Translations under genes and position numbers: made by a program | The notes under the pieces: model-generated | Databases searched by the model: none | What the model was told of the DNA's origin: nothing | What the model saw: only the letters and a program-made list of their open reading frames with translations | NCBI GenBank assembly: GCA_000611775.1 | Contig: KK106987.1 | Span: forward strand, 496,001 to 560,000 | DNA from: Umbilicaria muhlenbergii | Taxonomy: Eukaryota; Ascomycota; Lecanoromycetes; Umbilicariales; Umbilicariaceae | Direction of reading: 5' to 3' | Length of the DNA: 64,000 nucleotides | Shown here: positions 2,415 through 30,169 of the stretch, in pieces | Layout of the letters: each line of letters starts with the position of its first letter | Position numbering within the stretch: the stretch's first letter is position 1

Positions 2415-2439
2415 ATGCAGCGCAGCGCAAGCGGAAATT

Positions 2440-6250: not shown

Positions 6251-7319
6251 TTGATTTTGAACTCACCTTGACGTGTCAGGTCAGGGTGAATAATAAAGTA
6301 AAACACTGAGAGTTCTGCAGAACCTGTCAAGCCTTTATACATGATGCATTTTATTCACACAAGGGTTAAAACTTTACTTTTGCGCATTAAGGTTATCACT
6401 TATGCAGGTCAGAGTGATCTCAGTTTAAGTTTCATGTTCTTATTACTACACTAGTATCCTATTCTACAGAAACAATTTAAGCATTATCATTTAACATTAC
6501 TTCTTCAGTCATCATGCTGTCTTGAAGCAGGTATAGCTCTTGAATCCTGCATTTTAATAATATACAGTGCAAGATTTCCACTCAGGTCAAGAAGCAAGAG
6601 ATGTTTTATTAAAATCATATTCTTACTCTGAATAATGATCTGCTTTTCATGAATGATGAGCAAATTGATATCTGCGTGAGGGCATTAACTTTAGCATTAC
6701 TTTGTATTTCAGACAATTTACTTTTTAAAAATGAAATCAACAACACCTCTGTTGACTTTTGCAACATCAGCAGAGCAGTCTTCTGTTAATATATTTCTTT
6801 AACATTGATGTTCTGCATGCCTGGCAGATTGATCATGATTTCATGTATCAGATGTTGAAATGTAACTTTCAGAATAAGCAGCTCTTCTGTAAGCTGATAG
6901 TGTTTAATTTCATGAAGAGCCTTCACTGTAAAAGGGCATTAACTTCTGACATTATCAACTAATATGAGAAACTTACTTCTTGACTTAATTTTTCACAAAA
7001 CCTCTGACTGCTCTGAGTGAGCAGGTCTTTTTCCTTGAGGTGCAGATTATGCAATTAATCATCATCATATTAAGTCTTTCTGATGCTTCTCTGCAGCTTT
7101 ATTCTTTGATGATTTGTAAATCTTTGCTGACTTTCTGACTTGATGAAGCTCATCTTTGAAAGGAGGAAGAACAGCTGACAGATGTCTGACTTCATTTTTA
7201 ATACATGTCATACTTCAGTTACCTAGTAGGCATTAGCTTTCAGCATTACTATGAGTGTTGACTTGTCTAACTATACTTGTGAAAGGTTGTGAAGGTGTAT
7301 GACTAGTTAAAAGAGACAA

Positions 7320-7580
7320 GAGATGCATCAAAGAGATGTGTTGAATGTGACAGAGCATGATGATTATGAGAGAAATGAGTTGAAGATGACTGAGTGTGTT
7401 GAATGTGACAGAATGAGTTGAAGGTGACTGAGTGTGTTGAAGATGATAAAATGTGTTGAAGGTGATGAGTTCTGAAGATGATGAGATGCATTAAAAATGA
7501 TGAGTTTATTGAAGGTGATGAGGCACGTTGAAGTTGAAAAGATATATTAAAGATGAAGAAGCATATCAAAAAGGTGTGTA
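7320..7580. repeat. Degenerate GTTGAAGGTGATGA-type minisatellite in hAT copy A
   Basis: About twelve imperfect units of 18-24 bp with the core GTTGAAGNTGA, also present in copy C (about 240-480) and copy B (about 51,830-52,010). Its conservation in all three copies makes it part of the element rather than a later expansion. It produces open frames of repetitive Ser/Thr/His that I do not regard as genes. It may serve as a subterminal transposase-binding region, which is inference. Confidence 0.75.
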
Positions 7581-7892
7581 AAATCTGAAGATAATAAAAT
7601 ATCAATCATTAAAAATAAATGCAGATATTATTTATGAGCATTACTTAACTGACAAGTATTTAGATGAAGGACAACATGAAAGATGTGCATTAAAAATAAT
7701 GAGAAAAGTACACAGAGCTTGAAGATTTAAAGAGAAGCAAACCTCTGTCAGCATGAATAAATATCACAGGTGTTATCTAAAAGCATTATTTAATTGAAAC
7801 TTTAATAATGAAGTGTAAAAGAGGGATGCTAAAGTGCATGAAAAGAAGAACATGATCAGCTGCAGATTTTACATCTGTAGTTAAGTTGTCAA

Positions 7893-7992
7893 ATCAACAT
7901 AACACTTTCAGCATATTCACTGTAGAGGTGAGATGTTGTGATATCAACATTTAACTTTCAGTGCATTCACTGCAGCAGCAGGATGCTGTGAT
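7893..7992. repeat. 50-bp direct repeat pair in hAT copy A
   Basis: Two adjacent 50-bp units (7,893-7,942 and 7,943-7,992) beginning ATCAACAT and ending GTGAT, followed by the start of a third (ATCAACAC). The equivalent repeat is seen in copy B near 51,410-51,530. Confidence 0.75.
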
Positions 7993-8559
7993 ATCAACAC
8001 AGGTTTTTAAAAACATGATTAAAATACATAAATATAAACATTTCTTGCGCAACTCACCTCTGCTCATGTTATCATCATTTGATTTACACTTCACCTCATC
8101 ATTTAAATAATATTGTAAGTTAATATTAACATTAAATCCTGTTTAGCAGCGCTCTTAATCACATAAGCCTCAGTATTGAAATTCACAAGTCAAAGAACAA
8201 TTTATCAGCTGTGCATATTAACTCTTTTCAACATTCATCCTCCTTCATCATTTAGCAGCATGTCTCATTTCTTCAGGTATTACTCACATGTCAATAATAA
8301 TGACAATTATTAACATTTACTGTTTAATTTACATCACTTCTTCATCAGTACATTTAATCACCCGCTTTCTCACTCTTTTATGTTGAAAGCAAGGTAATGA
8401 TTAAAGATAATGCTTACATCATAAAAGACAGATCATTAATTTATATAATAATGATATAATCAAGTTCTTCTCTCACTTCATCATGATTAATCTACTTATC
8501 ACACCTCAGTGAGCAGATCAACATAAGATAAATGTTGCATTAATCACTCTGTAAAAGCA

Positions 8560-9641
8560 CCTCAATGAATATAATCAGCATGAAAGCATGATCAGAAAGC
8601 AGCAAAAACATTATAATAAAACTGATAATCAAGCTATAATTGCACATGCTAGAAATGCAGATGAGCAGGTTAAGTTAAAATATCATTAAAAAGTATAAAA
8701 AGTAACATCAGGTTGAAATGAAATGAATCATGATGAATATCAAGTCTTGATGAAAAATGCCTGAGAAATCAAGTCTGTGAAATGTTTCAAGAAGAAGTTG
8801 TCAGGTAAGATTAATAAATAATACTCATTTTGCAAGCTATTTACACTTATAACAGAATGACTTAAACAAAATCTCATGAGTATTTAAAACAAGATTATCT
8901 TCAAGTGTGAAAATATGAAAGATGAGTTCCTTCAAGCCTTGCTGTGAAAGAGTAGCAAAATCAAGCGTAACTTAACATGCATCAATGAGGGGAATGATGA
9001 TGATGAGAACAATGACATTAATGATGAAAAAAATGAAAATGATGATGAAGATGATGATGAAGATGATGATGACACTGATGCTGATAATGAAGAGAAGAAG
9101 ATAAGCAGATATGAACATTACTTACTGACATTACTTATTAATCAATGAGTATAAATGTCAGAGGAGATCAAAGAGGTAATTTTTAAACATAATGTTTCAA
9201 TTATGCAGCATCTTGAATGACTGATATATCATGCTGATTATGAGTTGTTGAAGCAAGCTGACTCTGAGGTAATGCTTGAAGATAATGCTGATGAGCTTAA
9301 TTTTAACATGAATACAGAACCTGAAAAAGAAACTTATAAACTTCTGAAAAAATCTTCATTTTCCTGCATACATTGTACATGATGTTAATGAGTTGAAGAA
9401 TGATCTGAAGGCTAAGAACAATGCTCACACAACTGAAGAATCAGTGAAGGAGGAAGTGTTGATTGAGAAGAAAATTATTAAAGTGTCAAAAGATGATTTA
9501 ATAACAGATCATGAACTTTTCATGAAGAACTTATTGATGTATAATGAGGAAGACTTTGTGGTGAATGATATTAAAAAGAATGAGAGCTTAAAATTAAAGT
9601 ATGAGAAAACATCTGCATTAAAAGAAGAAGTTAAAACTTAA
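8560..9641 (+). pseudogene. hAT accessory ORF with acidic central tract, unrecognised
   Basis: A frame of about 360 codons that can be followed when TGA is taken as a lost Trp codon, on the same strand as and upstream of the transposase. It has a Gln/Lys/Asn-rich N-terminal part, an Asp/Glu tract at about 8,985-9,105 (DDENNDINDEK then runs of D), the block EEKKISRYE, and a C-terminal segment at 9,393-9,641 (HELFMKNLLMYNEEDF) ending TAA. The same layout is kept on the minus strand in copy B (49,773-50,855), so it belongs to the element. I do not recognise a domain. It could be a separate accessory protein or an upstream exon of the transposase. Confidence 0.55.
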
Positions 9642-10254
9642 TCTTTTTTTATTAACTGCACATTTATACAATAAGCTCAGATGTTACCTATTGACATTAT
9701 CATTTACTCACTTTCATTGATGTATAATATCATGCTTTGACATGAAAATTAAAGTCATGAATTTATAATGAGAGGGTGTGTTTCTTCTAACATATGATTA
9801 TTCCTATTAAAATGAGTAGCATGTTGAAATCTTAAATTTCATTTAATCACAGCTGTTTCATAACTTCTTTCATTTTTATGATTTTTAGCATCTTTTTAAT
9901 TACTTGATTTTATAAGCTGAAAATGAATGAGTTTAATATCTTTTAACAGATCATCATAAGTCACTGTAAGATTATTTATAAGATGATCATCATTTTTGTT
10001 GCATAAACAAGCTTTTTCATGCATCATAAATGTGATTGAATATTAATACTGCAGGGTTACATGTAACATAGTGATTATCTTTGATGAGTAAAGAGGTGTT
10101 TTAATGCAAAGTACACACAATCTGATATCTGTTCAATTACACTGCAAGATTACATGTGCCTCATACATGTGTCTTGATCATTACTTTTTAACATTATTTT
10201 TCAAGAGTAAAAGAGGTTTTCTGTGTAACATATTTATCTGACATCTCTTTTGAT

Positions 10255-13200
10255 ATGCATATAAGTGTAATTATTCTTTACACAACAATATCTTCTTTCT
10301 TAAATCACTCATCACTGCAATTTCTGCATACACTTCTATCAATATATCTCAATATGATAATGACTTTTCTCTCTCAGAAGCAGAAGAAATTCTCATCTCT
10401 TTTTCATAATCACAAACCTCTCAGGAATCTGAGGATGCTTAAATTTTACCTCATGCTCTTTAAAATTTATCACCACTTATTGCACTTCAATGCAACACTC
10501 TCAAGACACACGTTTTCTGAAAAAGTGACAAGTGATATGTGAAATTCTTTCATGAGTGATGAAAGTCAACTCTACATGATCTTCACACTCATGACAAACT
10601 GAAAGACAATTTTAAATGAGGATTCACTACTCAGTCCTTCAACTACTGAAACCTGTTTGAGCAGGTTGCAGTCATGCAGAGTGAAAAGTTAAACTTATAA
10701 TATAAGCTTTATCAAGCTGTCATCAGTCACCTGAATATGAAGAACACTGATTTTAACATTATAAAGAAGCATTTGCATTTAAACTGCTGCAAGATATCAC
10801 TCAAGTGAAAGCATTCACAATTTACACTGAATGAACTGTTGCAGTCAACAGTAAGTTTGTTTCTTTTTATGTATTACCTTTCTTATCAGTATTAATGCTG
10901 AAAGTTAATGCTCTTATGATATTTCTTAAAAATGAACAGTACGCAACCTTGACATTTTAATATACATGAGAAAAGCCTTTGAACAGCAAATCATTAATGC
11001 ACTCATATTTATGAACGCCTCCTTCTGATTCATTGAGAACAAGCAGCTTCATATCACTTTTATGATGCTTCAAGATGACATTCAGATACCTTGTCACAAT
11101 AAAATCTGAAACCTTGTCACAAATCAATATCAAAAAGTGATGCTCATTGTACAAGAGAATCTTGCTCAGATAAACAGTAAAATGTCATTAACTTTAAATT
11201 ATTAATCTCATAATCACTTATCCTTCTTGACGGTTACTGCCTATTACATTGATAATAACTAAAACTACAATGAGGCCTTATTGAGATTTGAGCATGTAAA
11301 TGAGTCACATATTGAAGTCACTCTGACAGGTCACGTCCTTAATGTTTTAAAGATTTTTAAAATTAAAGACAAGCTTTTCATTATCATTATGAATAACATC
11401 TTTAATAACATCACTATGCACACACATCTGAAGTCAGTCTTAAGTGGTGATCATGATATTCAATGAGACAATGCTGAAGCAATAATATCATGCATAACAC
11501 ATATTTTAACTCTTGCTGTCAAGGCTTTACTGAGGTCACTTGATGTGAACGTCAGAAATGATCATCATGTGAAGATATAAAATGTGAACAAGTTGATAAA
11601 GATTCAAGAGAAGATATCTTTGATTAACATCATGCAAAAGGCAAGTGAAATGATAATGCTCATTGATAATGCCTGAATGTTAACAACATGTGACAGATTT
11701 AATATCTTTCAATTATAATCAACTCTTCCTCACAGATATTTGAATGATTTGCAGATATTCAACAGCAAGTTTATGTAAACAGCTTAAATTAAAAACCCCT
11801 TTAAATGATTCAAGATGTTAAAATGTGATGAAATTTTACATATGACATGCTTTTTTAAACTTATGTTCTATGAGAGGCCCTGCACAACTTTATCTTTAAT
11901 GAATAAGATAGAAAGCTCTGAGTTCTTGTAATCATTAATTCAGAATGAGAACAGGTCTGTTACCTTTTAACATTATTAAAATCATTTAAAGACTGAACTG
12001 CAGCACTTTTGAAAACTACTGAAGTTATAATACATAAAACCTGATACGTGTACAATCAATTCATCAATCACATTGTAGATCACTGCTGCTGAGTGCAGCT
12101 GAAAATCACTCTCTGAAAACATGAACTGATCACTGCCCTGAAAGCCTGTCAGGATAAGTTAAGAGATTATTATGAAAATTCACAAGCAAGTTAATGATGA
12201 ATTTATAATCTTGCAACTGTTTTAAACCCGTCATGTAAGATGATCAAGTATAAGATAACTTTGATGCATATATCTGCTTAATCATGACTAATGCATCATA
12301 GAGGAAGGAAGTAACAAAATCTTAAAAAATTAAATGAAATCAACAGTTTCAAGATTACTATGATTTACATTACTTAAAATATGAGAGTCTGACTATGAAC
12401 TCAACTACTGCTGCAGGTCAATCACAAAATATGAATTTCAACACATTAATTAAACAGACAGAGCTGAAGGATCAATGATGAATAAATACTTAAAATAATG
12501 TCTTTAAGTATCTTTCCACGTCAGTCAATTATGTCAATGATTCACTAAAGGTAATGCTCAAAGGTAATGCTGATATGAGGCTTGAGTTAATTATATCATT
12601 AAATGTGAAGTGTCAACTACAGTGATCTTAAAGGTTTTTTTCAGATGATAAGAGATGTTCTTGCTGTATGTGCTTTTGAAGTAGATGTGAAATGCATCTT
12701 TAATATGATTAAAGACATCTGCAATTGACGGCATGAACATCTGAGTGCTGAGATTATATGTATGCTCTGTTTAATTAAGTATCATAAGTGAAACACCTTG
12801 TTGAATGACCTCATTGATGATGATAACAATGATGAGGAAGTCAGCATCTCTGAAATCTGAGCTTAAGAGGCCTCTGTTCTGAATGAGTTAATTATAACAG
12901 ATGATGAGGAGGCTTATGAGTTCATGAAGACATCTCAATGAAGGAAGCTTACCTCTGTTAAGTGTAAAACAGTGACAATAAACAGTGATAATCATGATGA
13001 GTCTGACATGAACAATTCAGATGATATGAGAGTAGATGAACTTGCTGATATGCATCAAATGAGAGTGAAAATGAGGCAGAGTAATGACTCAAACACCTTT
13101 ATTATGATTGAAGATGTGTCAAAGGGCAGAAGATAAGATGATTTTAACATGTTTTTATCATCTGATGACCTGATGACCTTCCTCACTTCAGCATGAAGGA

Positions 13201-13394
13201 GTGAAGCTTGAAGAAGATCAACTGCAGTTAATCAAGATAAGCAACTTATGAATTCAACATATGAATGATGCATTATTATCAGCATCAGTCAATCAGTATT
13301 GCTGTCTGCAGATCAACACTGAGTTATGTTATGAAATCAGCTACAGATACAGTCTGCAAAGTTAAAAAAAGTATATAATCATCACAAATTCTAA
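10255..13394 (+). pseudogene. hAT-family transposase, decayed
   Basis: Recognisable blocks in order: a Cys/His-poor region at about 10,480-10,560 (FNATLSRHTFSEKV) that could be a BED-type finger; 11,281-11,460 with KIFKIKDKLF then NNITMHTHL, matching the hAT core where the catalytic Asp precedes Asn-Asn; 11,480-11,540 with AEAIISCITHILTLA; 12,150-12,260 with KLRDYYENSQ and IYNLATVLNPSCK; and 12,650-12,790 with the dimerisation (hATC) region DVLAVCAFEVDVKCIF. An acidic C-terminal extension follows to TAA at 13,392. Stops are mostly TGA and the frame shifts several times. Family assignment is also supported by the 8-bp TSDs of copy B. Confidence 0.8.
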
Positions 13395-13799
13395 ATAAAC
13401 ATTACCTTTGAGTATTATCTTTGAGCATTACTTTTTTAACATATCATGTTTTTCTTCATGTTTGCACAGTGCTTACAATGTATAATATCAGTCTTTGCAG
13501 ATTAATAATTCAATTATAAATATATAAAAGTATTCAATTATCACAATACTTATCTTTGATAACAACATAATGCAAAGCTGTGATAATATGAGAAGAAAAG
13601 TGATGTTATTACTTATATTAAATTTACTACTGTTATGATGATTAAGCAAAATTAACTGTATATGATTAGTTCAGTGTTCATGTGAGTACCTCAGAGTTAA
13701 CTTGATTGATCACTGAATATCAGGTTCATGAAGAGGTCAGATTTATAAGTTAAGTTCTTAATCATTAACCTGACCTGACCTGACTCAAATGACAGCCTA

Positions 13800-15465
13800 G
13801 GTGTTTTTGGGCGTTTTCAGCATTTTCAGTCATACTCACTGAAAAGTTACCTGATTGAGCTGAATTTTTCACCATAGATTCAGGCTCTTGTTTTGCATTA
13901 ATACTGAGAATTTCAGCTTTATCTGATGTGATTTGACTGTTTTGCATTTCAGCGTGCTGTTTTTAATTGTTTTGCGCAAATGCTGCATTTGCAACTTTTT
14001 GCATTTTCCTCATGTTTTCTGCAGCTGTTTTTACACTTGCATTCACACTGTCTGTTTTGCACTGTAGTAAATTCATTTTAGAATTTATGATCTGGATTTG
14101 GCTTTGCAAGTGATGATTTTGCACATTTGTATTCAAATTTGTCAATTGTGGACTTTTCACATTTTGTGAGTTTTGTGACTTTGCGAGGTGGAAAATTGCC
14201 TGATTTAGGTTAAATTTTTGCGACGGGTGTGATGCATTGACTAGATCTCACAGCGCTGAATTTGCTGCTAAATACAGTGATTTCATCATTTTGTGTCCCA
14301 AATTCAGTGTTTGTTCACTTTTACTTTGTTCACTGTTTTGCAGATTTTCACAGTTTTCCTCTGAACTTTGAATTCACACCTTTGCTGGTTGGTTTTCCTG
14401 TGAGGAAGTGATGTTTTTGCATTTTTTATCTTGCAATGTGACTTTTTTTGATTTGTCTGTGTGTTTGTGAGAAGGTGAATGAGCTGTTTTAATTATTATT
14501 CATAACAAAGTAGTTTTCCTTTGTTATAAATGCCGCTGACGTAGGTGTAGTGCACTGACTACTGTTTTCAGACTTCATGTCTGAAGTTATATTCATTATA
14601 ACATTTTTTAATGTTTTTCTGATGTTTTGATCCTGATGGTATTTTGAATTTACCTCAAGTTTAATATCCCTTCCTTTATAAGCTCAAGCACAATCAAGAG
14701 TTTAAAGGCCCCTTTTTTTATTCCTGATACTCAGAATAAGTAGCCACTATGATTCTTAGGAATTTAAGCCTTATAAAAGCCCCTAAAATCACCTGTAGCC
14801 TGACTTAATCTGAGCTTATTCAAATAGAAAATGATATAAACTCACTGATCTTTACTCTTTATATATAAAATGCTTGATGAGAGTTCTTTATATCTATTGT
14901 ACTCAGAATAGTGCTTTCCTCTGCAGACTTTTTTATTAATCTGAGCTTTTTACAGTACTTTATGTCAAACTTAAAAAGAATGACCTTTAGTATTGTAAAG
15001 CATGAAGGAAAATGCGGAAAAAGTGAAGTTTCATGATATTTTGCAAGGTGATTGATTTAAGGTTTAGTGCTTACACCTCATCAAAATTCTCAAGAACCAT
15101 GATTTGATGCATGTTAAATAATAACAAAAGCAGAAAGCAGTGAATAATAATGTATTTTAATGTTTTATAATTTGTAAAAGCAGTGTAAGATAGATTTAAA
15201 TTTAATTCTTACATGACAAATCAAGAAAAAAGGTGTTGTGGTTATTGTGTTGTTGTTTTTGTGATTTTTGATCATTTTTGATGTGAGGATTGCAACAACT
15301 TTGTGATATGCTTAAATTCATCATGCTTTCACAACCACTGCTGACTTTGAGAATTGAAAAAAAGGGTTTAAGTCTCTGAACTGAGTAGTTTATGAGGCCT
15401 ATGATAATGATATATTATATGTGTGACTTGGTTGCTTTTTGGTTTCTGCGTGCATTTTTTTTTAA
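13800..15465 (-). mobile_element. Tad-like LINE fragment L3 (5' leader and N-terminal half of ORF1)
   Basis: Read on the minus strand, it begins near 15,465 with the GCAGAAACCAAAAAG core of the 5' end. It runs through the leader, starts ORF1 at about 14,595 (MNITSD) and breaks off at 13,800 within the AENAQKH stretch, where the hAT copy A terminus lies. Segments at 14,160-13,963 and 13,947-13,765 correspond to residues about 155-290 of L5 ORF1. Several stops and TGA codons are present. The A/T run at 15,456-15,467 marks its 5' boundary. Confidence 0.85.
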
Positions 15466-17184: not shown

Positions 17185-17192
17185 TACTGTAA
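17185..17192. repeat. Target site duplication, left (TACTGTAA)
   Basis: TACTGTAA directly precedes the left end of the large DNA transposon. TACTGTAT directly follows its right end at 29,678-29,685. Seven of eight positions match. An 8-bp duplication fits what is reported for Zisupton/KDZ-type elements. Confidence 0.6.
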
Positions 17193-17420
17193 GGGCCTCT
17201 ATGATAATTGCATAACTGTTATACAACAGTTACATTACAGTTATACAACTATTATACAGTTATGCAACAGCTGCATAACTGTTGCATACAAGTTATGCAA
17301 TCATAAAAGTTTATGCAATGGTTACATAATCATCACAAATACATGCACACGGGGCATAACTGGTTTCAGTGACAGGGCATATATGTACATTATGTTCAGT
17401 GACAGGGCATAACTGATTCA
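17193..17420. repeat. Left subterminal repeat cluster of the 12.5-kb transposon
   Basis: Many short repeats in both orientations, such as TTGCATAACTGTTATAC, CAACAGTTAC, TATGCAACAG and GCATAACTGTTGCATA, between 17,207 and 17,330, followed by two copies of CAGTGACAGGGCATA (17,370-17,412). The mirror image of the first motif set fills 29,520-29,660. Clusters like this usually bind the transposase; that role is inferred. Confidence 0.75.
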
Positions 17421-17859
17421 CAGTTGCAGATTTGAATGAGTGATTGATTCAAGCAGCTAAAGCAACTGTAATGTTGCAATGAAGACTGAAGGTATATAGC
17501 AGAGATGTGATAAGAATTAAGCAAATAACACTTCATTTCTCCTCATTTAGTAGCTTAAGATTCTCAAGCTCATCTGATGACTGACAGCTTGAAATAAAGA
17601 ATGCAGTGATTTTTTTTACTGAATCTTCTTCTCCTTCTTCATCCTCTTCTCTTGCTTCATCTCACTGCTCTGCTCTCTTCTTCATTTCACCTCATGGCTT
17701 CACTCCTGACTTCACTCTCAACCTCACCCTCACCTCAGTGTCATTATCATCATTTAGTCTCAGCTGAACTTCTGTGAATTATTGTCACTTTTGACTGAAT
17801 TGTCACCTTTGATGTGAGGATGATGATTGCTGATCATATCAAGCCTGATCATTGTTGAG

Positions 17860-17979
17860 GATGTCATTTATATTAACAAAGCCTTCACTGATGTCCTTTA
17901 TGTTAATGAAGCCTTCACTGACATCCTTTATGTTAATAAAGCCTTCATTGACATCCTTTATGTTAATGAAGCCTTCACT
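17860..17979. repeat. Four 30-bp tandem repeats (coding, acidic decapeptide)
   Basis: Units at 17,860, 17,890, 17,920 and 17,950, each ending in GCCTTCA(C/T)T. On the minus strand each encodes a SEGFINIKDV-like decapeptide. They preserve the frame and contain the recurrent palindrome half AAGCCTTCACT. Confidence 0.85.
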
Positions 17980-18879
17980 GACATCCTCTTCTTCAAGATC
18001 ATCCCTCATGTCTTTCTGCATATTCTCATGATCATGACCTTTCATGATCCTCTTTCACTTCATCAGCTTATTATGTCTTGTGTTAAAAAACACAGCATCA
18101 AGACTTGCATCTGAATCATCATTCAAATCAACAGGAACATCTCTTCTCAGACTTTGTTTAAGCATTTTCTCTGAAAAGTCATCAATCATGATCAGGTCCT
18201 TGAACTCCCCCTTTTTTCAGAAGGCGTCAAACATATTCAGCAGGTGTTGTTGAGTGTATTTTAAAATAATCATGTCTCAGGGCTCCTGCTTGAGCAGTTG
18301 AGTCATTCAAGAGTGAACAATTAACTGTACAAATGCATAATGTAGGAAGAGTAGCTTGTTGAATGATGCATCTTTAAAGTTCATCACCTCATTGATGAAC
18401 TTGAAGACAGAATCAAGTCAATGATCTTGATAATCAACATTGACCTCATCCTTGAGCTGTTTGAAAGCTTGAATGTCTTCAAGGTTGTTGATGATGACGT
18501 AGTGTTCAATTCACGTCAGAGATGCTTTGAGGATATGATTTTTTCAAGTCTTATATGCACTTCACACCCTCTTTTCCTCTTCTTTGAACACAGGATGATT
18601 CTTTCACATATCAGGAAATGTCATCATCACTGACTGCTTCACATTGAGATTAGAAAGTGTGACACAAAATCATCATTAAGCTGTGATGAAGAGTTCTTCA
18701 TACATCTGAGAATATGACTTCAGCATTTTTTTAACATCATTGATGCTCTGATCTGCAAATGTATCATTTGTTATTGTTGAGTCACTTTAACTTCTGCTCA
18801 ATGTGCTGTCTCTGTCTTCAGATCATGGCGTGAAACTGATGTTTAACAGTTTATTGAATAGGGCTTGTCAGAAGTTTAA

Positions 18880-19130
18880 TGAGGTTGAGGAATGAAGCTG
18901 TTGACTCAATGAGGATCAGAGTTGTTGACTTGATGAAAGTCAAAGTTGTTGACTTGATGAGGGATGAAGTTGTTGACTTGATGAGGAATGAGGTTGCTGA
19001 CTCACAGATCAGGTTTGCTGACTTGTCAAGGGACAGGATTACTGACTTGAAGGCTGAGCTTATTGACTTGAAGGTCAAGCTTGTTGACTTATTAAGAAAT
19101 GAGGTTGCTGACTTGAAGGCTGAGTTTAAG
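18880..19130. repeat. Degenerate 18-30 bp repeats encoding Q/S-rich segment
   Basis: Repeated GTTGTTGACTTGATGA and GACTTGAAGGCTGAG units. On the minus strand they encode SSSQQL and QPSSQQ runs in the frame of the surrounding gene. On the plus strand they yield a stop-free, heptad-like 174-codon frame (18,879-19,403), which I take to be a by-product. Confidence 0.7.
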
Positions 19131-19859
19131 GTTGTGACTCATGACTTAATGAAGTCTTCACTGATTTCTGAGCTTGTCAGATATTTGATGATGCTGAAGG
19201 CTGAAACTCATCATTTAGTGAAGTCTTCACTGAGGCATAATTTGTTGACCTTCAGCTTAAAGGTTGCATACTCAGTCCTGATTGAGACAAAGTGTCATCA
19301 ATATCATCTCATACTCTCTTCCTTGACTGAGCGTCAGCAGTGGCTCTTAAATCATGAAGTTGAGATGCTGATAAGTGTTGTGAACCCTGTGATGATGAGG
19401 TAGGTGCATTATGTTCAGTTATAATCATAAATGATATGATGTTTGTCCTCTGAATGATGTTTATTCTCTGAATGATGTTAGGCCCTTTCATTTATCAAAG
19501 ATATAAGCAAACATACCTTCTTTGAAGGTGAACTGATTATCATGTCCTCATCACTCTCATCATTTAAGGCATGATTGATACAGCGTTGATGATCTTGCTC
19601 AGATCAAGAATTTGACAACTCATCTCTTGATGTGTCTGCCGTTGAGGGTGTGACATTTTGATCAGAGGTTTAACAGCGTGACCCTCTTGACTGAGAGATC
19701 ATATTAACCTACAGTGCTGAGTATCTACATCATACTGTGCAGGGAGGTTGACTAGTGAGTGATTACTTCAACTGTCAAGAGGCTTTATTTTGAAGCCTCA
19801 TTATCAGTGTTTAATCAAATCTGAATTTGATGACATCATTAAATAAATCAACATCTGAG

Positions 19860-20401
19860 GCCTCTATAAGTCAAGAGGCCACACAACATCAGTCACTTTT
19901 AGATTAAATTTATCATCTTCACTGCTGTTCTCATTATTATCTTTTATAATCTTCTTCTTAAGATTCTTTTTTGTGTTATTCTTGTTCTTGTTATCCTGCT
20001 TCTGATCCTCCTTCTGATCCTTGATGTTGACACTTTTGTTAGTGCCAAATATGCTGAGCTTCAAATCTATTGTCAACTGAGCCTTGTCAACAGAAGTAAT
20101 TGAGGCGGCTGATGAGGCAGCTGACAGGGCGGCTGACAGAGCATATGACAGCACAAGGGAGATGAACTGTGAAGGAGATGAGAAGATTAATAATGCACAC
20201 ATGCTCAAGTTGATTAAAGTACTTACACAAGCCTGAGACAGTGACATTTAATGCTCTGTAAGCATACATAACTGCCTTCTGCTTAATCTTCTTCTTCATC
20301 TTCTGCGCGCCTGATGTGATTGACTGAACAATGTTTGCTTGCTGAGGCAATACTATTGTGCAAAAGAATGATGAATGAATGATGTCACTGAAGTTGAACA
20401 T
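19860..20401 (-). pseudogene. Possible upstream exons of the minus-strand gene
   Basis: Two overlapping open frames on minus. One (20,401-20,087) begins MFNFSDIIH and has a basic stretch KMKKKIKQKAV. The other (20,247-19,864) has a highly polar tract (DQKEDQKQDNKNKNN then KKNLKKKIIKD, SSEDDKFNL). The polar composition and position directly upstream of the Q-rich gene suggest these are its 5' exons, but I could not place splice sites with confidence. One of the two frames is a shadow. Confidence 0.3.
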
Positions 20402-21188
20402 CAGAGCCTGTTTGTAGCTAGTCAGGCAATGTTCATTGATGTGAATAATTCAGAGGTTATTGATCATTGCAGTTCAGGCATAATTTGAGAGATCTGTTGT
20501 CATTAATATTTTAACATAAGTAAAGAGTTCACATTTGCTGTCTCAACTCACATCTACACATCAATGTTAATCATTTTATTTCTTTGTTCAGAAATTTGTC
20601 ATCAGCTCTTGTTCTGACCTGATGAAGTCTTTCCTGAAGCTCTTGATGCCTGCACTTAAATGTTGAGTCAAGTCATTCACTGCTCAACATTCACTGTGTA
20701 AGTCAACAATCAACGCCCTCATCAATCTTTTCATTAATCAACTCATTAATATCTTTATTCTATTTCAATTCAACCACTTACCTTGTGCTGATTGTATCAT
20801 CAACGTGTTGATTGCTACAGCTCATCAAGTGCATCTTAAATTCAATTTTAAATCATACCTTCAAGATCTGAAGTCAAATCAGAAGTTCAGTTTAACCTTG
20901 AAATCTGAACTGAAGGTGAATCTGATCTCAGGTATGAAGTTGAATTCATAAGTTTTCAACATTAAACCTCTGATTAAACCTCACTTCAGAGATCAAAGTC
21001 TTCATTCTCTTTCATGACAGTCTCCTCCTTCATGATGTCATCTCAACCTCATTCACCTTCCTCTCATCTGCATTCACCCCCTTCACCTTGACCCCCTTCA
21101 TGACAGCTCAGTATAATCACATGTTGAGGTGCACCTCAGTGAAGCCTTCACTAGAGCTTCATTAGCTAACTTATTTATAATCATCAGC
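20402..21188. other. Divergent intergenic region of the 12.5-kb transposon
   Basis: About 790 bp between the minus-strand gene and the helicase gene, presumably with both promoters. It shows local short repeats (AAATCTGAA / TCAGAAGTTCAG at 20,865-20,935), pyrimidine-rich stretches (CATTCACC, CCTTCACC at 21,045-21,100) and one copy of the palindrome AGTGAAGCCTTCACT (21,139-21,153). No coding frame is supported. Confidence 0.5.
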
Positions 21189-24100
21189 ATGACTCATGAT
21201 ACTTGCAACATATGAATGAACTGAGAACGCCTAGTGAAGTTTCTTGATATAGAGTCAAAAGAAGAGCTACAAGTGTGAGCAGAGAGTAAATTGTTCAAGC
21301 TGACTTTCATGAAACTTGACAAAGAGGTCATCACAAAGGAGTGAGAAGAAGTTAAGAAAAAAGGTGTCCTCTGATTTAAAATGTTCTCCTTAAACACTGT
21401 TCAGAAGCAGCTGATTGCTGATGAGAAGACTGAGCTTGCCAAATACTCTGCAAGACATATTGATAAGTCAGACTGAGTCATCATTAATCATTATGCATAC
21501 TTCCTCTACTGCATCAAACAAGATAATACCACCTCTTATGACAGGATATTCTATGAGCAATGTTTAACAGACTCTGAGCTTGATGATCAGGTCTGATTAT
21601 TATTAAAATGATTCTCTTATGACCTGTCAGACTTCAGGAAGGTGACATTCAATGAGACATAAATTTTAAATGAGACCCTGAGAAAGAAGAAAGCTTGAAC
21701 AATTGCAGCAGTGACTGAGGAAGAATCTGACATGAAGAAGCTTATTGATGATGAGGAAAGAATCATATTTCAAAATGAACTCTGAGTCAAGAGTCAATCA
21801 GTATGATCTCACTTCAAGACAGAAGATGATGAGTGAGGTAACTTCAAGCTTGCTTAAATCACATGTTAATCTACCACAGAAGAAGCACTAACTGCAGAAA
21901 AATGAGTTGCTGATCAAGAGGTTGAGATGATTAATGAGACTGAGGTCATTATATCAAACGCAGGTATTGTCATTGATAACATTGAATATATGAAATTAAA
22001 ACACATCAGTCCTACACTTAAGATAACAGATCACTGATGACAACACATGATGTTGCATACTGCAGTTGACATTGTCAGCACCTGACATGATCTTGTCACT
22101 GAACTTCAGCACATATATGCAGATGATCACCTCAATGATGCACAGTTCATCACCTGAGAGAATGAAGTACAAAAGATGATGAAAAAGAATAACATCTCAT
22201 ACAGTGACTTTGATGAGACAGCTGCTGTGAAGTTTGATGAACAACAAAGTTGACTTAACAATGAATGCTATCAGTGAGAGGATGTTGCTGAGGCCTGTGT
22301 CAACCTTAACATTGTCAACCTCAGCTGATCATGACTAGAGGGTATGCCCTTTGCCTGTCAGCTTCAAATATGATAAGTCATGATCATTCATGCAATCATT
22401 GTCTTTCAGCTCAGTCTGCTTCATGAGTGTGTCATTGCTGACTGTGTCAGACTTGATAAAACATGAACTGTGATTGAGTATATCATATCTGTAAGTCAAG
22501 CCCTCACCCTCAACTGGCCCCCTTGGTGAAGGCTTCACTGAAGCGCTCAAGATTAACTATATTATAATGAGTCAATGCATGGTTCAAGGTTAGCCCTGAT
22601 GATCAGGAGGCCGTGAAGCCTACAATCATCATCATATCACTCAACCTCATTGATCAGTGAATTGAGGAGATTGCCTGAGTCACTTCAGGTCTTAAGATCT
22701 GAAAATATTAAGAAGATGTCAAGTCACAGTTAAAAGATTTACTCAACATCATTTTTTAAACACTGATCAAGAACCATCACCTGTTTAGTGATAATGACAG
22801 CAATGAGAAGAATGTAATCATCATGATATATCAGACCTGAGCAGCAAGACATGAGGTTCAAGATCAGCAGAGTTGATGTCTTCAGAACAGTTACTTCAAG
22901 ACTGCAATTAAGAGCAAAATGCAGGAATATGACCTGAACTGGTCACATGATCTGCATGATCAATTCAACATCATCATTCTGAATGAAGCACACGTCATCA
23001 AAAATGATAAGATTCAGCTCAATACTTCATTATCTTGATTAAAGTCATTCTACATGGCATTAAGTGCGTTTATGACTATGGCTGAAGCTTGAGATTTCAG
23101 TGACTATCATAAGCTATTGAAACCCATTAACGCTGAGTCTCTATGGTCATCAGTCAAGCTTATTGAGTATGAACTTGACTCTGACATTAATCTTAACACC
23201 TTCAACCCTTATGATCTGTCAGCTGAACATGCTGCAACAGTTCTACAATTGACTATGTGTGCAGCAAAGCAATGAATTTATTCACTTCATATATCAACAT
23301 CAATCACTGAAGCCCGTCTGCAAAAGTTGTGAACTGAGTGCATACTTCAGTGCACTCATGCTTTCAAAATTCTGTTCAATAACTCAAAGATCATTGAAGA
23401 GAACCTTTCATGCATCAATGCTAAGATCATTAAGACTTAATACATCATTTCTGAACAAAAATTATATCAAGAACAAGCAGATCAACTTTACTGCAAGCTG
23501 ATCTACTCTGATCAAAAGACTCATCAATCAAAGTGAAGCTTCCTCACACTGTGCAAGATATTCTTATGTTGTATTTAAGTTTACTTCTTGCACATTGAGC
23601 ACATGATTAAAGCCTCAACAATGTGATGATGAGTGACTGACCTCATCTTTATTTGATGATGGCTGAAAGAAATTTTCAAGAAGGTATCAGACTTTGAGCT
23701 TTTTTCACAGAATGATTGACTTAAGCTTCTCATCATGTTGTGCTGTGATTTTTTCAAGCTTCAGATCACGTTGATCCTCCTGACTGATGTTGTTGTTCAT
23801 GATCAACAGAAAGTAATTGTATGATGCATGTATCCTGTCACTCAATTGCTACTGTATGATGCATTGCAGCTTGCTGAAGTTAACTGTATCATCTTTTACG
23901 CTGAGATGTCATCAGATGAGTGATTCAAGGTGATCTCAACCTTTAATGACAGTGACAAAACTGACATGATCTTCATTAAGTCTTACATGATCAGCTCCTG
24001 TGAGCTTAATCTACAAAAGTGATGTTGAAATGTTGTTAACTTCAACACCTCACTGAGTGATTCAATGACCATGCAAGCTGTCAGCTGTGCACGCTGAATG

Positions 24101-24493
24101 AGGAACTCAAGCAAGGTCATCAATGTTTTTGATATTCATAATAAAAATACATTCAATGATCATCTTGTTAAGAACAATATTTGCAAGTCTTTCCTCACTG
24201 TGATGACTGAACTGAACAAACAGTTGTTCAATGATCATGATGAAGGATGAGATATGAAGGCTTATGATGATGACCTTGACCTTGAAGACTTTCTCATATA
24301 CAATGAGGAGCTATATCAGGAGAATGCATCTGAGGTACAAGAAAAGCTGAATCTCAAGCATGTGAAAACTGAGAACATCCTTTGATGAATCATCAAGTTC
24401 ATCAAGGATGAGCATGTTGTCATGAGTTCTGATTCTGAGTCTGAAGTGGCAGGAGAGGAGATTAAGGATGACAGTGATTCTTCTGAGATTTAA
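21189..24493 (+). pseudogene. SNF2-family DNA helicase/ATPase of the transposon
   Basis: About 1,070 codons after removing a likely intron. An N-terminal helical region runs from ATG 21,189 to about 22,300. Helicase motif I reads VIADCVRLDKTW (22,430-22,470; the family has GLGKT). Next is a GT-AG intron (22,491-22,588, GTAAGT...CAAG, phase 0), then KPTIIIISLNLIDQW (Ia). Motif II reads IILNEAHVIKND (22,975-23,010; the family has DEAH/DEGH). The C-terminal lobe has KVIVWCMYPV, CELNLQKW and the motif VI-like SMTMQAVSCARWMRN (about 24,060-24,110). An acidic tail ends at TAA 24,491. Stops are mainly TGA at Trp sites and motifs I and II are damaged, so it is inactive. SNF2 ATPases translocate on DNA; here it may open chromatin or act with the transposase. 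Confidence 0.75.
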
Positions 24494-25351
24494 TGAAGAC
24501 TTCATCAGGGCAGCTTTCAATGATATGTAGACTCCTTGATGTTATTGAGGCTTGATGCTAACTAGTCAGTGATTAAAGGCATTACATGCTCATCACATGT
24601 ACAGTAGTGCCTGATTTCTCCTTGATGATTTCATGTTTCCCTCAGTGATTTCATATTCCTCTCTGTGATTTCCTCTTTATGAGTTTCACAGCAGTTTTCA
24701 TGGTTTCTTCTGTGATTGATGATTGGCAGTTGGCGGTTGGCGGTTCTCAGCAGTTGTCATGATTAGTAATATATGTAATGTGTTGCCTATGAGTGATTAG
24801 TATAGTCTTGATGAGGGGCTTGTTGATCAGGAAGCTGAAGGGGGGAAGGATCTGAAGAGTGTGTGAGGTTGATTGATCAAGGGGATCATCATGCATCACT
24901 TAATGTTCAAGTCATAAGCCTCCTATGATGATGAATCAGCTCATTACATGTAGTCATCAAATATTCAGTTCTTATGTGTACACACACTTTCTGATTTAAG
25001 CTTTTTGAGCACATTCATTTCAGGTTCAAAAACCCAAAGCTGCTCATTAAAAACTAAACAATATATTTTAAAAACTAGTTTAGAAAATTAAATAAATCAG
25101 TGTGGCTCATTGGTAATGTGAAATGTAACAGTGCTGAGTTCAAGTCTCAGATGAGTTCTGCCTTCATACATGTATCTTTTGAACAAATGAAAGATGCATG
25201 ATGAGCACTCAGCTTATCATGTTGAGCGCCTGCTACAATCAGAAATCATTAAAATTTTGCATACTTTTTTTGATGAGTCACTCACTTGTCATTTTCTTGA
25301 TTTTTATTTATTCTGCTGTCTTATAGCACCTACCCTGCTTCATCACACATC
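24494..25351. other. Spacer between helicase and transposase genes
   Basis: No coding frame is supported. It shows repeated GTGATTTC(A/C)T units at 24,620-24,720, a GGCAGTTGGCGGTTGGCGGTT triplet repeat at 24,725-24,745 that keeps CpG, a purine-rich GAAGGGGGGAAGG at 24,837, and a tRNA-like block at 25,096-25,162. The transposase promoter should lie here. Confidence 0.5.
25096..25162 (+). ncRNA. tRNA-like relic (possible SINE head)
   Basis: TGGCTCATTGGTAA resembles an A box / D arm. Thirty bases on, CTGAG-TTCAAGT-CTCAG forms a perfect 5-bp T-arm stem with the canonical 7-nt TTCAANT loop. The acceptor stem pairs poorly and the anticodon arm is not clear, so this is no working tRNA. It could be a decayed tRNA pseudogene or the head of a tRNA-derived SINE captured by the transposon. 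Confidence 0.35.
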
Positions 25352-28300
25352 ATGACTTCAAGAAATGTTAACCGTCTTGAGTGAGTGACCTGAACGCCGG
25401 CAGGAGCATATGATCATAAAGACTCACATGAACTTGACTCACATGAACTCAACTCACATGAACTCAATTCACATGAACTCAACCCACATGAGCTTGATGA
25501 CTCACATGAGCTCAATGACTCACATGAGCTCAACAACTCACATGAGCTCAACAACTCACATGAGCCTGATGATCATGAGCCTGATGATCATGAGCCTGAA
25601 CGCATAGATGATGGTATTAGTCAATTCAATAATGACAGTCAAGATGAGCAAGGGAGCAACAGGAGTAATGAGGTCTGAAGAGATCTTTATGATATTATAT
25701 GTTTCATCTTCAAAGCAACATCTACTGATGCATACAGGATGATCAGGAATATTTATATTTTAAAGTGAAACCTGCATCTTTGATGAATTATGAGTTAGAT
25801 CTCATTAATATTGAAAATCTTGATGATCTTAAAGACTTCACTCTTGATGACTCTGATGATCTTGATGACCCTGATAGATGATCAGCAGCCTCTGAAACTT
25901 CATCATTTAAAATCATTGAGACTGTTACCTTTGAATATACTCTGCCTTCAGAAGTTCTTGCCCTCAGTTTATGATGTGAGAAGTCTGAGATATTCAGAAT
26001 GAATTATACACATCTTTGAGAAGTCCTTCATATGTCACTTAACTTGATGAAGGCTTCACTGAAGTGAGTTAATTCTGAGGAGCTTGATGCAGATTCTCTT
26101 ATGCTGAACACTGACATCCTGCACCTCCCTGCCAAACTTGATATCATAAAACATCAGGTTCAATGACATCTATTAATGCTGCAGTTAATGCAGAAGTCAC
26201 TGACAGTCCTCATTAAGAAGCAATCCTCTCTACTGGCTGAAGCAAAGGACAAGAGGGGGGACATACTGAAATGAACAAGCTGACAATACTGATATGATTC
26301 ATTGAATCTGGTTACCTGAATCCTCTCCGCATATCAGCTATGAGACAAGATGCATTTTGACATGACTGAATATCAAGATGAGTCAACTGAGTTATGACAC
26401 TTCAGAGTGTGAGGTTCATTAATTCAAGCTACTTCTGATGACAATGCATATAATCAGGCCGGTGAGCTGTTGATTTCAGAGGACATCATATGATTTCAAC
26501 TTATGAAAGAATATTTCAAAGGCTGAATCACCTTCATTGACTGAGATCATAGATTCACAGCCAGGCATGTGAGTGAGGTTGTTTTTACAGTGCAGATAAT
26601 TCTAGCAGACCTCATCTTTCTTCTCTCAGCAGTGTTATTAAATCATGATGATCATGAGCTGTTTCTTATGAAGGACATATGTTTAAAACTCACATCAAAT
26701 ATGATTATTCATCACCTGAATGTGTTTCTTGACTGAAAGTTTATGAATGAGGAAATTATGTATCCTGATGACTGCTTCTACATCAGACGTGTTGTCAGCA
26801 ACAATATAATGCAAGCTTGAAATCAGCTACATTCAACTCAGGTGAAGCTGAAGGTGAATCACTTTAAGTGAGATCATGTCATCAACATCTTTTTCATGTC
26901 AATATGCTCTCTATCATTTATTCTCTTTATCAATGACTTCAGTGTACATTAAAATAATTATCAGGCCCTCAAAGCCTTCTATCTGATTTCAGTCAGTCTT
27001 TCATATGAAGAGAGATGAAAAGTGGTCAATGTTTTTTCACTTATGCTAAGCTCACATGAGGCAGACATAAGTGATGTTGTTGAGGCATTTGTCACATCAA
27101 TGCAGCAGCTTGACACGGGGTGTACTTTCAATATACATGAAGAAGATACACTGATTTGTGCATTCATCATGATCATTATTGAAGACATGCCTCAACAAGC
27201 TGACAATGAAGGATTTCTTCATCACAGTGCAAAGACAGGCTGTTGAAGCTGCTTCTGTCTCAGTGATCAACAGGTCAATCTACAGTATGACATTATAAAT
27301 CATGATTGATATCACTGAGAGACTGTAAGTTTAAGGGATGAGGCTGCTGAGTTGACTGATGCAGAGAAGATGAGATTCCTGAAGAAATATGACCTGCAGG
27401 AGCAACAATCATCAATCATGACAATGTTGACATCAGCACTTGACCTCATCATCTCATCAGAATATGACGCACCTCACTTTAAATGATGAGGTTTAAAATG
27501 AATACTACAGAGCCTGTTGTTCTCTGTCATCTTCACAAAGAAGGGGAGCTCTTCTTATCTTAAGGTCTTTCAGACATTCAGGTATCCTTCATCATGACTC
27601 AAGATTTAAAGTTTAATGTATTACATCTGATCATGATCACTTTCTGAGGCAGGTAAAGTTACAATCCTGATGCTGCTGATTCTACATAATCATGTCAATG
27701 TTAATTAATTTCATCTATCATTCCTTCATGCAGCAGACAAACACCTCAACTGCACTGACATCACACAACTTCCCCTCATGCTGCTCATAATCTGCGCTTT
27801 TTGAATCATTGCACAGTTCAATACCGCTGTTGAAAGTCAATGATATACACATTCAGACACACTACACCGCCTGATCATCAAGGCCTGAAGGTGTTATCAA
27901 CAACTGATGCATTACATGATGAAGGCTGCTGATGAAGCCTTCACTGAGACATCACCTGCAGACAGAGAAGTATTGAATGAGTCAGATGCAATCATCAATC
28001 AGTCATTATTGAAAGCTGAGGAGTCATTAGACGCTGATGAGTCATTAAACATCAGTGAGCAACTAGATGTTGAGACCTCAAGCTGATGTAAGACAAAATT
28101 CAAGTTGAAGAAGCTATTAAGTCCTCTGACATCTATATCAATCTTTACATAGCTGACTTCATGTATATAAGCCTTCTCAACATACATGCCGGCTTGCACC
28201 TAGCAGACACCGCAAGGGAGTACATCACAGTCATGAATTATAACATCCTTGCTGAGGAGCTTAAGCATAAGTACAAACTGTTTATCACCTGCTATGATAC

Positions 28301-29084
28301 CTCACTGATGAGTTATAGGGGGATAAAGGCAATGGCAGACACAGCTGCACCCTCAAACCTTATGAACTATATCTTCACCAAGGATGTTGTCAAGCAGTCT
28401 TTACAACTTGAGCTTGCAGGTGCTTGAGATCACACACACTCAGAGGTTATGAAGTGTCTGGCAGTTCTGAAGAAACACTGCCTCACTGTTCTCAACAACT
28501 TCCTTTCAGTGAGGGAGCATGAGCTTGATGAGGATGATGATGAGGAGGAGGAGAGGATTCAGACTGTAAAGAATGACAGTCATTGAAGGATCAGTTTGTC
28601 TGTCTTTAAATTTAAGCTCTCACGTCACTTCTATAGCATACATCAGATGATCAAGTCAGTCAATCTGTCACTGTAACATATCTTTCAACAACACTTGACT
28701 CAGGCCTTCAATTTGAACTACAGGCTACGTGAAGTGTGAGACATAAGATCTCAATGACTCAAATGAGCATGTTGATTGACATACACTGATCAGTGAGCAG
28801 TTTATTAACTGATAATCATGAGGATCTAGACCCCGCTCTATTCAGTCAATGTGTATGCTAATGAAGGCTTCACTAGGATAATGAATCAACAGACAGTACA
28901 CAACATGAGGAATTATATTCAAGTGAGGTATGAAGCTGACGCTCATGCTCATGATCATGATCATGATTAATACTAATATCAATACTCAACCTGAACTCAA
29001 ACCTGAACCTGAATTCAAACCAGAGCTGAAGCTGAAGCGGAGACAGGAGCAGAGGCAGAGGTGAAGGCAGAGGTGAAGGCTTAA
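25352..29084 (+). pseudogene. TNP2/KDZ-type transposase, decayed
   Basis: About 1,240 codons from ATG 25,352 (MTSRNVNRLE). An SHEL/SHEP repeat tract is followed by an acidic linker (DDSDDLDDPD, about 25,845). The core reads FILFINDFSVHWNNYQALKA (about 26,920-26,980), SLSYEERWKVVNVF, DVVEAFVTSMQQLDTG (27,070-27,118), MPQQADNEGFLHHSAKTGC (27,187-27,243), YDIINHDWYHWET, and SLLNIHAGLHLADTAREY (28,167-28,220) with MNYNILAEELKHKYK. I know these from fungal TNP2-like/KDZ transposases: the acidic DF..Y motif, DMPQQ..N.GF and the NIH.GLH..D block. There are frame changes near 25,700 and 28,085 (introns or decay) and many TGA codons. The C-terminal tail is Ala/Glu-rich and ends TAA at 29,082. Confidence 0.75.
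25425..25600 (+). repeat. 15-18 bp tandem repeats encoding SHEL units
   Basis: Eleven or so units of CACATGA(A/G)CT(C/T) spaced 15 or 18 bp, ending with three GATGATCATGAGCCT units. In the transposase frame they encode (D/N)SHEL(D/N) and DDHEP repeats. All spacings are multiples of three. Confidence 0.85.
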
Positions 29085-29399
29085 ATGATCAATGTTCACT
29101 TGACACAATGTTTTGCTTGCATATATCACAAGTGACAATACATGTTCATGATCATGAATGTTATATGTGCAGAGAGTGAGAAAAACCCTGTTCTGAATCT
29201 TCTGTTACACTGAGTAACATGAAGACAGAGCATATATGAACTGCCTGCTCTACAGAGGAGTGAAGGTTTATACTACATTGATGTGAATATGAATGAAACA
29301 TGATTGTCTCATGAGCTGAATGATGATGAGAGTTATGTATTAGAGTGTGACTGAGGAGTACATTATCTATAATCAATAAAGCTGACTTACTTTACATTG
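29085..29399. other. 3' region after the transposase gene
   Basis: About 315 bp with no supported gene. It contains CATGATCATGAA palindromic stretches and a short open frame on minus (29,376-29,161) without recognisable features. A terminator should lie here but I see no defined signal. Confidence 0.4.
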
Positions 29400-29677
29400 C
29401 AATTACATCATAACCAGTATCACTGCTACAACCGTGACTTGAAATTTCAGTGGATAAATGCTCACATAACGGTTATGGGTTGTTGCAACCAATATGGTGT
29501 TGATGTTGTAATTATAATGCAGCGGTTGCATGACAGTTGCATAGAGTTGCATATAGTTGTGCAACCTTTACATGACAGATGTGCAGCAGTTGTGAAATTA
29601 TTATGCAAAGGTTACACAACTTTATGCAATCTTATACAACTGTTATACAACTGTTATTCTTTTTACTGTACAGGCTG
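29400..29677. repeat. Right subterminal repeat cluster of the 12.5-kb transposon
   Basis: Repeats such as GGTTGCATGACAGTTGCATA, TTGTGCAACCTTTACA, GGTTACACAAC and TTATACAACTGTTATACAAC, inverted relative to the cluster at 17,207-17,330. The end of the element, CAGGCTG, is followed by TACTGTAT, the TSD partner of TACTGTAA at 17,185. Confidence 0.72.
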
Positions 29678-29685
29678 TACTGTAT

Positions 29686-30169
29686 GATGATGTTGTATTA
29701 TTCATGAACAAGGAGAGGTTTGCTGCAGTAAGTTTAACAAAGGAAGTGAAATTCTCTGACATAATATTTAAAGACAAGAGGAGGTTCTCTGTAGTATATT
29801 AAGTAAATGAGTACATGATGCTGTTATATTATTTAAAAACAAGAGGAGGTTTGCTGTTGTGTGAGTGAAATGAAGTTCTCTGACATAATATGTCAAGTGA
29901 TGAGGAAAGTGAGGTGTAAAGCTCATTATTCAGTGATGAAGCAATGACAGTGAATTATTTTAACTCTGCACATCATTCAATGAGGAATTTCTCTGAGCAT
30001 GTCATGTATGATGCTTCATAATATGATAAGTATGCTTCATTAAGTGTTATTCATAGCACGTGAAGCAATCAGGGTCATGTGATGAGAATTTAAAAAATTT
30101 TAAAAAATCTTTTATTGATTCCTTCTTGAAGGTGTTAACTTTTATCATTAATCATTAATGCTTCAACCT
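29686..30169. repeat. Three imperfect direct repeats of about 65 bp, otherwise empty
   Basis: AACAAGGAGAGGTTTGCTG (29,705), ACAAGAGGAGGTTCTCTG (29,773) and AACAAGAGGAGGTTTGCTG (29,838), each followed by a similar stretch with TCTCTGACATAATAT in the first and third. No gene is supported in the rest of this interval. Confidence 0.6.

What the first reader, a model, noticed from the sequence alone, without database searches (positions are those of the whole stretch)
17185..29685. A 12.5-kb DNA transposon carrying transposase, SNF2 helicase and a divergent Q-rich gene
Directly seen: matching 8-bp flanks (TACTGTAA / TACTGTAT), inverted clusters of TTGCATAACTG-type repeats at both ends, and three long protein-like frames that decayed in the same style. 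Known: TNP2/KDZ transposases and SNF2 ATPases have the motifs listed in the features, and Zisupton-type elements make 8-bp TSDs. Inference: the helicase and Q-rich protein are cargo or partners of the transposase, not neighbours by chance. A transposon that brings its own chromatin remodeller would be unusual and may be undescribed in this form.
Basis: partly seen in the sequence, partly recalled or inferred. Interest (0 to 1): 0.85.

Follow-up and report, generated by a model that had tools for sequence, protein, structure and literature searches.

The report
RIP-dead fungal transposon with helicase gene
This stretch looks like the mutated remains of one large cut-and-paste jumping gene, probably from a fungus, that carried a transposase, a DNA-motor (SNF2) gene and a third gene region resembling a piece of the RNA-silencing enzyme Dicer; transposons with such motors are on record, but the Dicer-like piece may be new.

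Summary
Decayed genes and matching repeat clusters at both ends are real; the 8-bp target-site duplication is unproven. About 17.19-29.69 kb is best read as one CMC-type (CACTA/EnSpm-like) DNA transposon killed by C-to-T hypermutation. It holds a minus-strand Q-rich gene, a divergent SNF2-like gene (Pfam SNF2 1.5e-5, Helicase_C 0.0026, both below curated cut-offs) and a transposase recognised only by motifs (D, D, C(2)C, H(3)H, E; no Pfam match). For repeats derived from the left end, the right end ranks first of 446 windows. A transposon with an SNF2 helicase is not new: a 2013 paper credits "Inton and Enton" with one. No genome, second copy or empty site was available, so that the three genes moved together is inferred from one copy. 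This copy must be inactive.

The parts
17185..17192 (.). left candidate target-site duplication TACTGTAA (weak)
   Evidence: 7/8 match to 29678-29685; chance depends on edge freedom
17193..17340 (.). left subterminal repeat cluster (TTRYRYAAC-type motif, both orientations)
17710..20750 (-). decayed divergent gene, approximate limits; C-terminal part 17710-18700; lysine-rich stretch about 19930-20020 in another frame. That all of it is one gene is inferred
   Evidence: minus-strand readings; 17710-18700: 16 stops in this frame against 42 and 30 in the other two minus frames; no Pfam match for 18280-18699 or 17710-19401
18858..19401 (-). Q/S-rich repeat part of the divergent gene (17% Q)
   Evidence: against: 11 stops in 181 codons, while a plus frame here has none
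20090..20449 (-). stop-free 120-aa frame; residues 14-67 (20249-20410) match Pfam Dicer_dimer PF03368
   Evidence: 1.1e-5, 25.8 bits against cut-off 23.7, unmodified DNA; 4.4e-4, 20.7 bits in the first long-frame scan
20750..21290 (.). space between the divergent gene and the SNF2-like gene
   Evidence: gene layout
21290..24494 (+). decayed SNF2-like gene: SNF2 domain 22607-23056, Helicase_C 23786-24082, degraded Walker A-like stretch 22437-22463 (by eye, against a recalled consensus)
   Evidence: PF00176 1.5e-5, 24.7 bits against cut-off 24.9; PF00271 0.0026, 18.4 against 23.5; 52 stops (44 TGA, 8 TAA) in 1040 codons of the two frames; the piece with the Walker A stretch matched nothing
25350..28970 (+). 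decayed transposase gene, approximate limits; repeated His/acidic N-terminal stretch 25422-25599
   Evidence: readings; tandem repeat; no Pfam match to a transposase
26935..28259 (+). CMC-like catalytic motifs: D 26935, D 27184, C(2)C 27241/27250, H(3)H 27301/27313, candidate E 28254 or 28257 in another frame
29440..29660 (.). right subterminal repeat cluster
   Evidence: top of 446 windows for left-derived 9-mers
29678..29685 (.). right candidate target-site duplication TACTGTAT (weak)

Best explanation
One inactivated cut-and-paste DNA transposon of the CMC (CACTA/EnSpm-Mirage-Chapaev) kind, about 12.5 kb, in a fungus-like genome with RIP-like C-to-T hypermutation. Working copies would have used the DD..E transposase to bind the subterminal repeat arrays and to cut and rejoin the ends (inferred from motifs and anatomy). 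The SNF2-like motor most likely helped the transposase reach or remodel chromatin-packed ends or targets (inferred). The divergent Q-rich protein, with a Dicer-dimerisation-like domain and a lysine-rich stretch, is most likely an accessory nucleic-acid- or partner-binding protein of the element (inferred, weak). Shown here: gene remnants, shared end repeats, hypermutation. Not shown: mobility, gene linkage in other copies, exact ends.
For: Shared repeats at both ends. SNF2 and Helicase_C matches in order. CMC motif order in the transposase reading, as described for CMCT and Sly1-1. Even G+C (0.365-0.389) over seven segments from end to end, against 0.314 and 0.279 in the 5-kb flanks. No strong match inside the region to the repeats that fill the rest of the window. 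Size and an extra gene resemble Sly1-1, 11,534 bp.
Against: No Pfam transposase match in any piece; the transposase call rests on motifs. SNF2 and Helicase_C scores lie below curated cut-offs; phmmer against the PDB found nothing for the helicase or the Dicer-like piece. TSD unproven. No CAC..GTG ends seen; CA sites are the least hypermutated context here, so loss of a CAC end by this process is no easy excuse. Even G+C is not unique: a LINE-like stretch elsewhere has 0.357. One weak outside match (159 bp, 63%, 3e-4) to 60297-60451. No second copy, no empty site in the window.
Confidence: 0.7

Rival explanations
1. A composite: a CMC transposon next to, or inserted beside, unrelated decayed genes or a second element that carried SNF2 and the Q-rich gene. 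They were neighbours by chance and were hypermutated together.
For: Only one copy is seen and no genome is held; hypermutation also covers the flanks (CpG o/e 0.13 and 0.06), so shared decay does not prove shared origin.
Against: Matching repeats at both outer ends, no second set of such ends inside, even base composition.
Confidence: 0.17
2. A KDZ (Zisupton-type) element with 8-bp duplications.
For: A 7 of 8 direct repeat at the proposed edges, not reached by any of 1500 random pairs if those edges are taken as fixed.
Against: The edges are not fixed by anything else; the motif order is the CMC one; no transposase family matched in Pfam.
Confidence: 0.05
3. A helicase-bearing Academ (AcademH) element, for which 9-10 bp duplications are reported.
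For: The direct repeat extends to 8 of 9 (TACTGTAAG/TACTGTATG); AcademH is reported in fungi and makes 9-10 bp duplications.
Against: Academ helicases are reported as RecQ/DEAD type, ours matches SNF2; 9-mer pairs this good occur in 214 of 400 random zone pairs. The AcademH paper could not be read, so transposases were not compared.
Confidence: 0.06

Closest known systems
[quoted passage not shown]
   Same: CMC-type transposase with C(2)C and H(3)H, similar size (11,534 bp), an additional gene, RIPed copies of about 12 kb
   Different: two genes only are described, the second of unknown function and, in Chaetomium, divergent from the transposase; here the SNF2-like gene is on the transposase strand and a third, divergent gene region has a Dicer-dimerisation match. 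No sequence comparison was possible
Inton and Enton, said to encode an SNF2 helicase (one sentence in PMC3627910, passages seen; the source it cites not seen)
   Same: transposons with an SNF2 helicase
   Different: nothing else about them was available here
TET/JBP-bearing fungal EnSpm/Plavaka elements (PMC12730594: abstract, first part of Results, section 3.3, first part of Discussion, passages seen)
   Same: CMCT transposases with C(2)C and H(3-4)H in fungal elements that carry an accessory gene, proposed to resist silencing
   Different: SNF2 and Dicer-dimerisation matches here; no TET/JBP match in the Pfam scans (that Pfam holds such a model is recalled)
AcademH and KolobokH (known here only from passages in other papers)
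   Same: DNA transposons with a helicase gene, found in fungi
   Different: RecQ-type helicases; 9-10 bp duplications for AcademH

Membership tests
CMC/CMCT (CACTA/EnSpm-like) | DD..E with C(2)C and H(3-4)H between the second D and E | tested here: met
   motif order; by motif only, in a decayed reading; the loose D-C2C-H pattern has 20 start positions in six frames of the window, the stricter D-hydrophobic-P form, written after seeing this site, has one
CMC/CMCT (CACTA/EnSpm-like) | profile or tree relationship of the transposase | tested here: inconclusive
   no transposase family at E up to 10; decay may hide it; no sequences for a tree
CMC/CMCT (CACTA/EnSpm-like) | CA..TG (EnSpm CAC..GTG) ends and 2-5 bp target-site duplication | tested here: inconclusive
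   TGAT flanks TAC(T/A)GTA on both sides by reading, too short to mean anything; no CAC end at the edge
KDZ/Zisupton | 8-bp target-site duplication | tested here: inconclusive
   7 of 8 match; 0 of 1500 with fixed edges, 344 of 400 in 80 x 55 bp zones
KDZ/Zisupton | KDZ-type transposase domain | tested here: inconclusive
   no match in Pfam scans; that Pfam holds a KDZ model is recalled
SNF2 ATPase | SNF2 motor and Helicase_C lobes in order | tested here: met
   PF00176 1.5e-5 and PF00271 0.0026, in order, both below the curated cut-offs
SNF2 ATPase | intact Walker A | tested here: not met
   reads degraded in this copy (by eye); speaks against activity, not ancestry
Dicer | Dicer dimerisation domain | tested here: met
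   25.8 bits against cut-off 23.7 on an unmodified open frame; covers profile positions 20-72 of 89
Dicer | helicase, PAZ and RNase III domains in the same gene | tested here: not met
   no such match in three minus-strand frames of 17185-21213 or of 21200-29103; not filed as a Dicer
AcademH | RecQ-type helicase | tested here: not met
   best match is the SNF2-related domain

The most novel reading that the evidence does not exclude
Intact relatives of this transposon carry a two-part kit against host silencing: an SNF2 motor that opens heterochromatin over the element, and a protein with a stand-alone Dicer-dimerisation domain that competes for Dicer's partners or binds its RNA and so blunts RNA interference.
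Probability: 0.12. Interest if true: 0.8.

Novelty: new variant of a known kind. Interest (0 to 1): 0.42.

Why it matters
Fungal transposons are known to pick up genes that may fight silencing (TET/JBP). If less decayed copies confirm that one element carries both a chromatin motor and a Dicer-like partner domain, that would be a directly testable case of a transposon acting against both heterochromatin and RNA interference. If not, it remains another large accessory-gene-bearing CMC transposon killed by hypermutation.

Tried and rejected
Alternative genetic code (TGA as a sense codon): frames lengthen, but TGA falls where both arginine and tryptophan would be expected by recalled motif consensus, TAA also occurs in the frames, and repeat copies elsewhere show the same C-to-T process; rejected.

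A Dicer gene: only the dimerisation domain matched; rejected. Structure prediction of that domain from one sequence gave mean pLDDT 48.9 and was not used. PDB sequence searches found nothing (at E up to 1, at E up to 10). Relatives: pattern matches but no confirmed hit in viral contigs or genome contigs; these collections are viral and prokaryotic, so this says little. Weak Pfam hits judged chance, all under cut-off: EP400_N 0.0032 (0.041), MMACHC 0.011, FtsL_2 0.042, FilE_C 0.0082 and Cas6b_N 0.048. No tRNA or Rfam match in the window. Host species: not determined; 'fungus' is inferred from RIP-like decay and the kind of elements.

Own slips found on checking: the stop count for the Q-rich gene, piece 8 and piece 8 were set in the wrong frame; replace the first two, and the third is replaced. 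One search also read 25702-28101 in frame with W/Q at stops and found nothing. After this I lowered the best explanation from a drafted 0.72 to 0.70 and raised the composite rival from 0.15 to 0.17, because the Q-rich part is less clear-cut than I had it.

Literature searches for an SNF2 gene in such elements: KDZ+SNF2+transposon, 0 papers; SNF2+Tnp2+transposon+fungi, 0; EnSpm+SNF2, 2 papers, unrelated by title and start of abstract, not opened; 5 of 6 terms, 34 papers, 20 listed, 4 of these opened for passages or sections; Academ+SNF2+transposase, 2 papers, both opened for passages. I did not search specifically for Dicer-dimerisation domains in transposons.

Full report
What is there. The stretch 17185-29685 differs from its surroundings in base composition: G+C 0.365-0.389 in seven consecutive segments, against 0.314 and 0.279 in the 5-kb flanks, though a LINE-like stretch elsewhere has 0.357. 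Both edges hold clusters of a short, nearly palindromic repeat. Using only repeated 9-mers from the left edge (74 on both strands), the best two of 446 windows of 280 bp start at 29440 and 29580, with 56 and 41 matching positions; the next, at 52960, has 38. One of the 446 windows overlaps the left cluster by 28 bp and is not among the top eight. The hand-made consensus TTRYRYAAC has 8 of its 13 occurrences in the two ends; this second test is post hoc. A local alignment of the left cluster with the reverse complement of the right one scores 27, reached by 4 of 500 random pairs; it lies inside the clusters (about 17224-17302), not at the very tips.

Target-site duplication. TACTGTAA (17185) and TACTGTAT (29678) match at 7 of 8 bases, TACTGTAAG/TACTGTATG at 8 of 9. 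If the edges are taken as given, 0 of 1500 random 8-bp pairs do as well; with 12, 20 and 30 bp of freedom the rate is 2%, 12% and 31%. In zones of 80 x 55 bp, 344 of 400 random pairs hold an 8-mer pair with at most one mismatch and 214 of 400 such a 9-mer pair. A perfect 8-bp repeat, TTACTGTA at 17184 and 29663, is also there. As nothing else fixes the edges, the duplication is unproven. By eye TGAT flanks TAC(T/A)GTA on both sides, a 4-bp reading, equally unproven.

Genes. Plus strand 21290-24494: the piece 22574-23080 matches SNF2-rel_dom at 1.5e-5 (24.7 bits, cut-off 24.9) and 23756-24220 matches Helicase_C at 0.0026 (18.4 bits, cut-off 23.5). The first piece was cut after a long-frame scan in which the SNF2 hit had 1.9e-4. 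Plus strand 25350-28970: no Pfam transposase match in any piece, but the reading holds D (26935), D (27184), C(2)C (27241, 27250), H(3)H (27301, 27313) and, in another frame downstream, a candidate E (28254 or 28257). The loose D-C2C-H pattern has 20 start positions in six frames of the window; the stricter D-hydrophobic-P form, written after seeing this site, has one. This order is described for CMCT transposases (PMC12730594) and for Sly1-1 (PMC4592977). Which residues are catalytic is inferred from recalled family knowledge.

Minus strand about 20750-17710: a divergent gene with a Q/S-rich part. In 17710-18700 its frame has 16 stops, against 42 and 30 in the other minus frames. In the Q/S-rich part (18858-19401) it has 11 stops in 181 codons while a plus frame has none, so there the coding strand is uncertain. 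No Pfam match to 17710-19401. An unmodified, stop-free 120-aa frame at 20090-20449 upstream in this gene region matches Dicer_dimer at 1.1e-5, 25.8 bits, over the curated cut-off of 23.7. It was first found in a scan of 12 long frames, with 4.4e-4. In all 18 long frames scanned with X at stops (six each; three, three) only this and SNF2 were below 1e-3. Of ten unmodified window frames it alone passes a cut-off. That this frame and the Q-rich frame are exons of one gene is inferred.

Decay. Five aligned pairs of repeat copies in the window, which overlap in part, differ by 1142 transitions and 69 transversions; the share of C positions that differ as C/T is 0.42 before G, 0.30 before C, 0.21 before T, 0.16 before A. 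The element has CpG o/e 0.12. In six frames (2720 codons) there are 104 TGA, 20 TAA, 1 TAG, no CGA and 4 TGG. This is the mark of a RIP-like process, with CpG and CpC preferred over the CpA of Neurospora (the latter as stated in PMC12730594). This copy cannot make its proteins.

Comparison. The nearest described element is Sly1-1: 11,534 bp, CMC transposase, a second gene of unknown function, divergent from the transposase in Chaetomium, and RIPed copies of about 12 kb. In Neurospora intermedia spore-killer regions a Sly-like transposase gene has a neighbour gene that may belong to it (PMC6185902, passage). The Dicer-dimerisation match is the part for which I know no precedent, but I did not search the literature for it specifically. 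One paper reports a fusion of a DEAD helicase with a Dicer-dimerisation domain among fungal host-TE fusion candidates, noting that Dicer itself has a helicase (PMC10799480, passage).

Limits. One copy, no genome, no relatives in the collections searched, no empty site in the window. The mechanism (transposase on end repeats, SNF2 motor as helper, Q-rich protein as accessory or counter-silencing factor) is inference from anatomy and family knowledge.

Noticed in passing
57719-58672 and 55186-58582: A LINE-like element: Exo_endo_phos_2 match at 1.2e-12, less hypermutated (CpG o/e 0.42), with an 87%-identical copy at 2393-5895.
   Followed up: partly
44687-48205 with 10273-13800; 49138-52492 with 6844-10275: Long inverted pairs of repeat copies, 86-90% identical, differing almost only by transitions.
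   Followed up: partly
4470-4660: A perfect 96-bp tandem duplication inside a repeat copy, presumably recent.
   Followed up: no
63612-63828: A 105-bp tandem duplication, 96% matches.
   Followed up: no
39901-40658: An assembly gap of 758 N; repeat copies end against it on both sides.
   Followed up: no
29684-29906: Imperfect direct repeats of about 100 bp directly outside the right end of the element.
   Followed up: no
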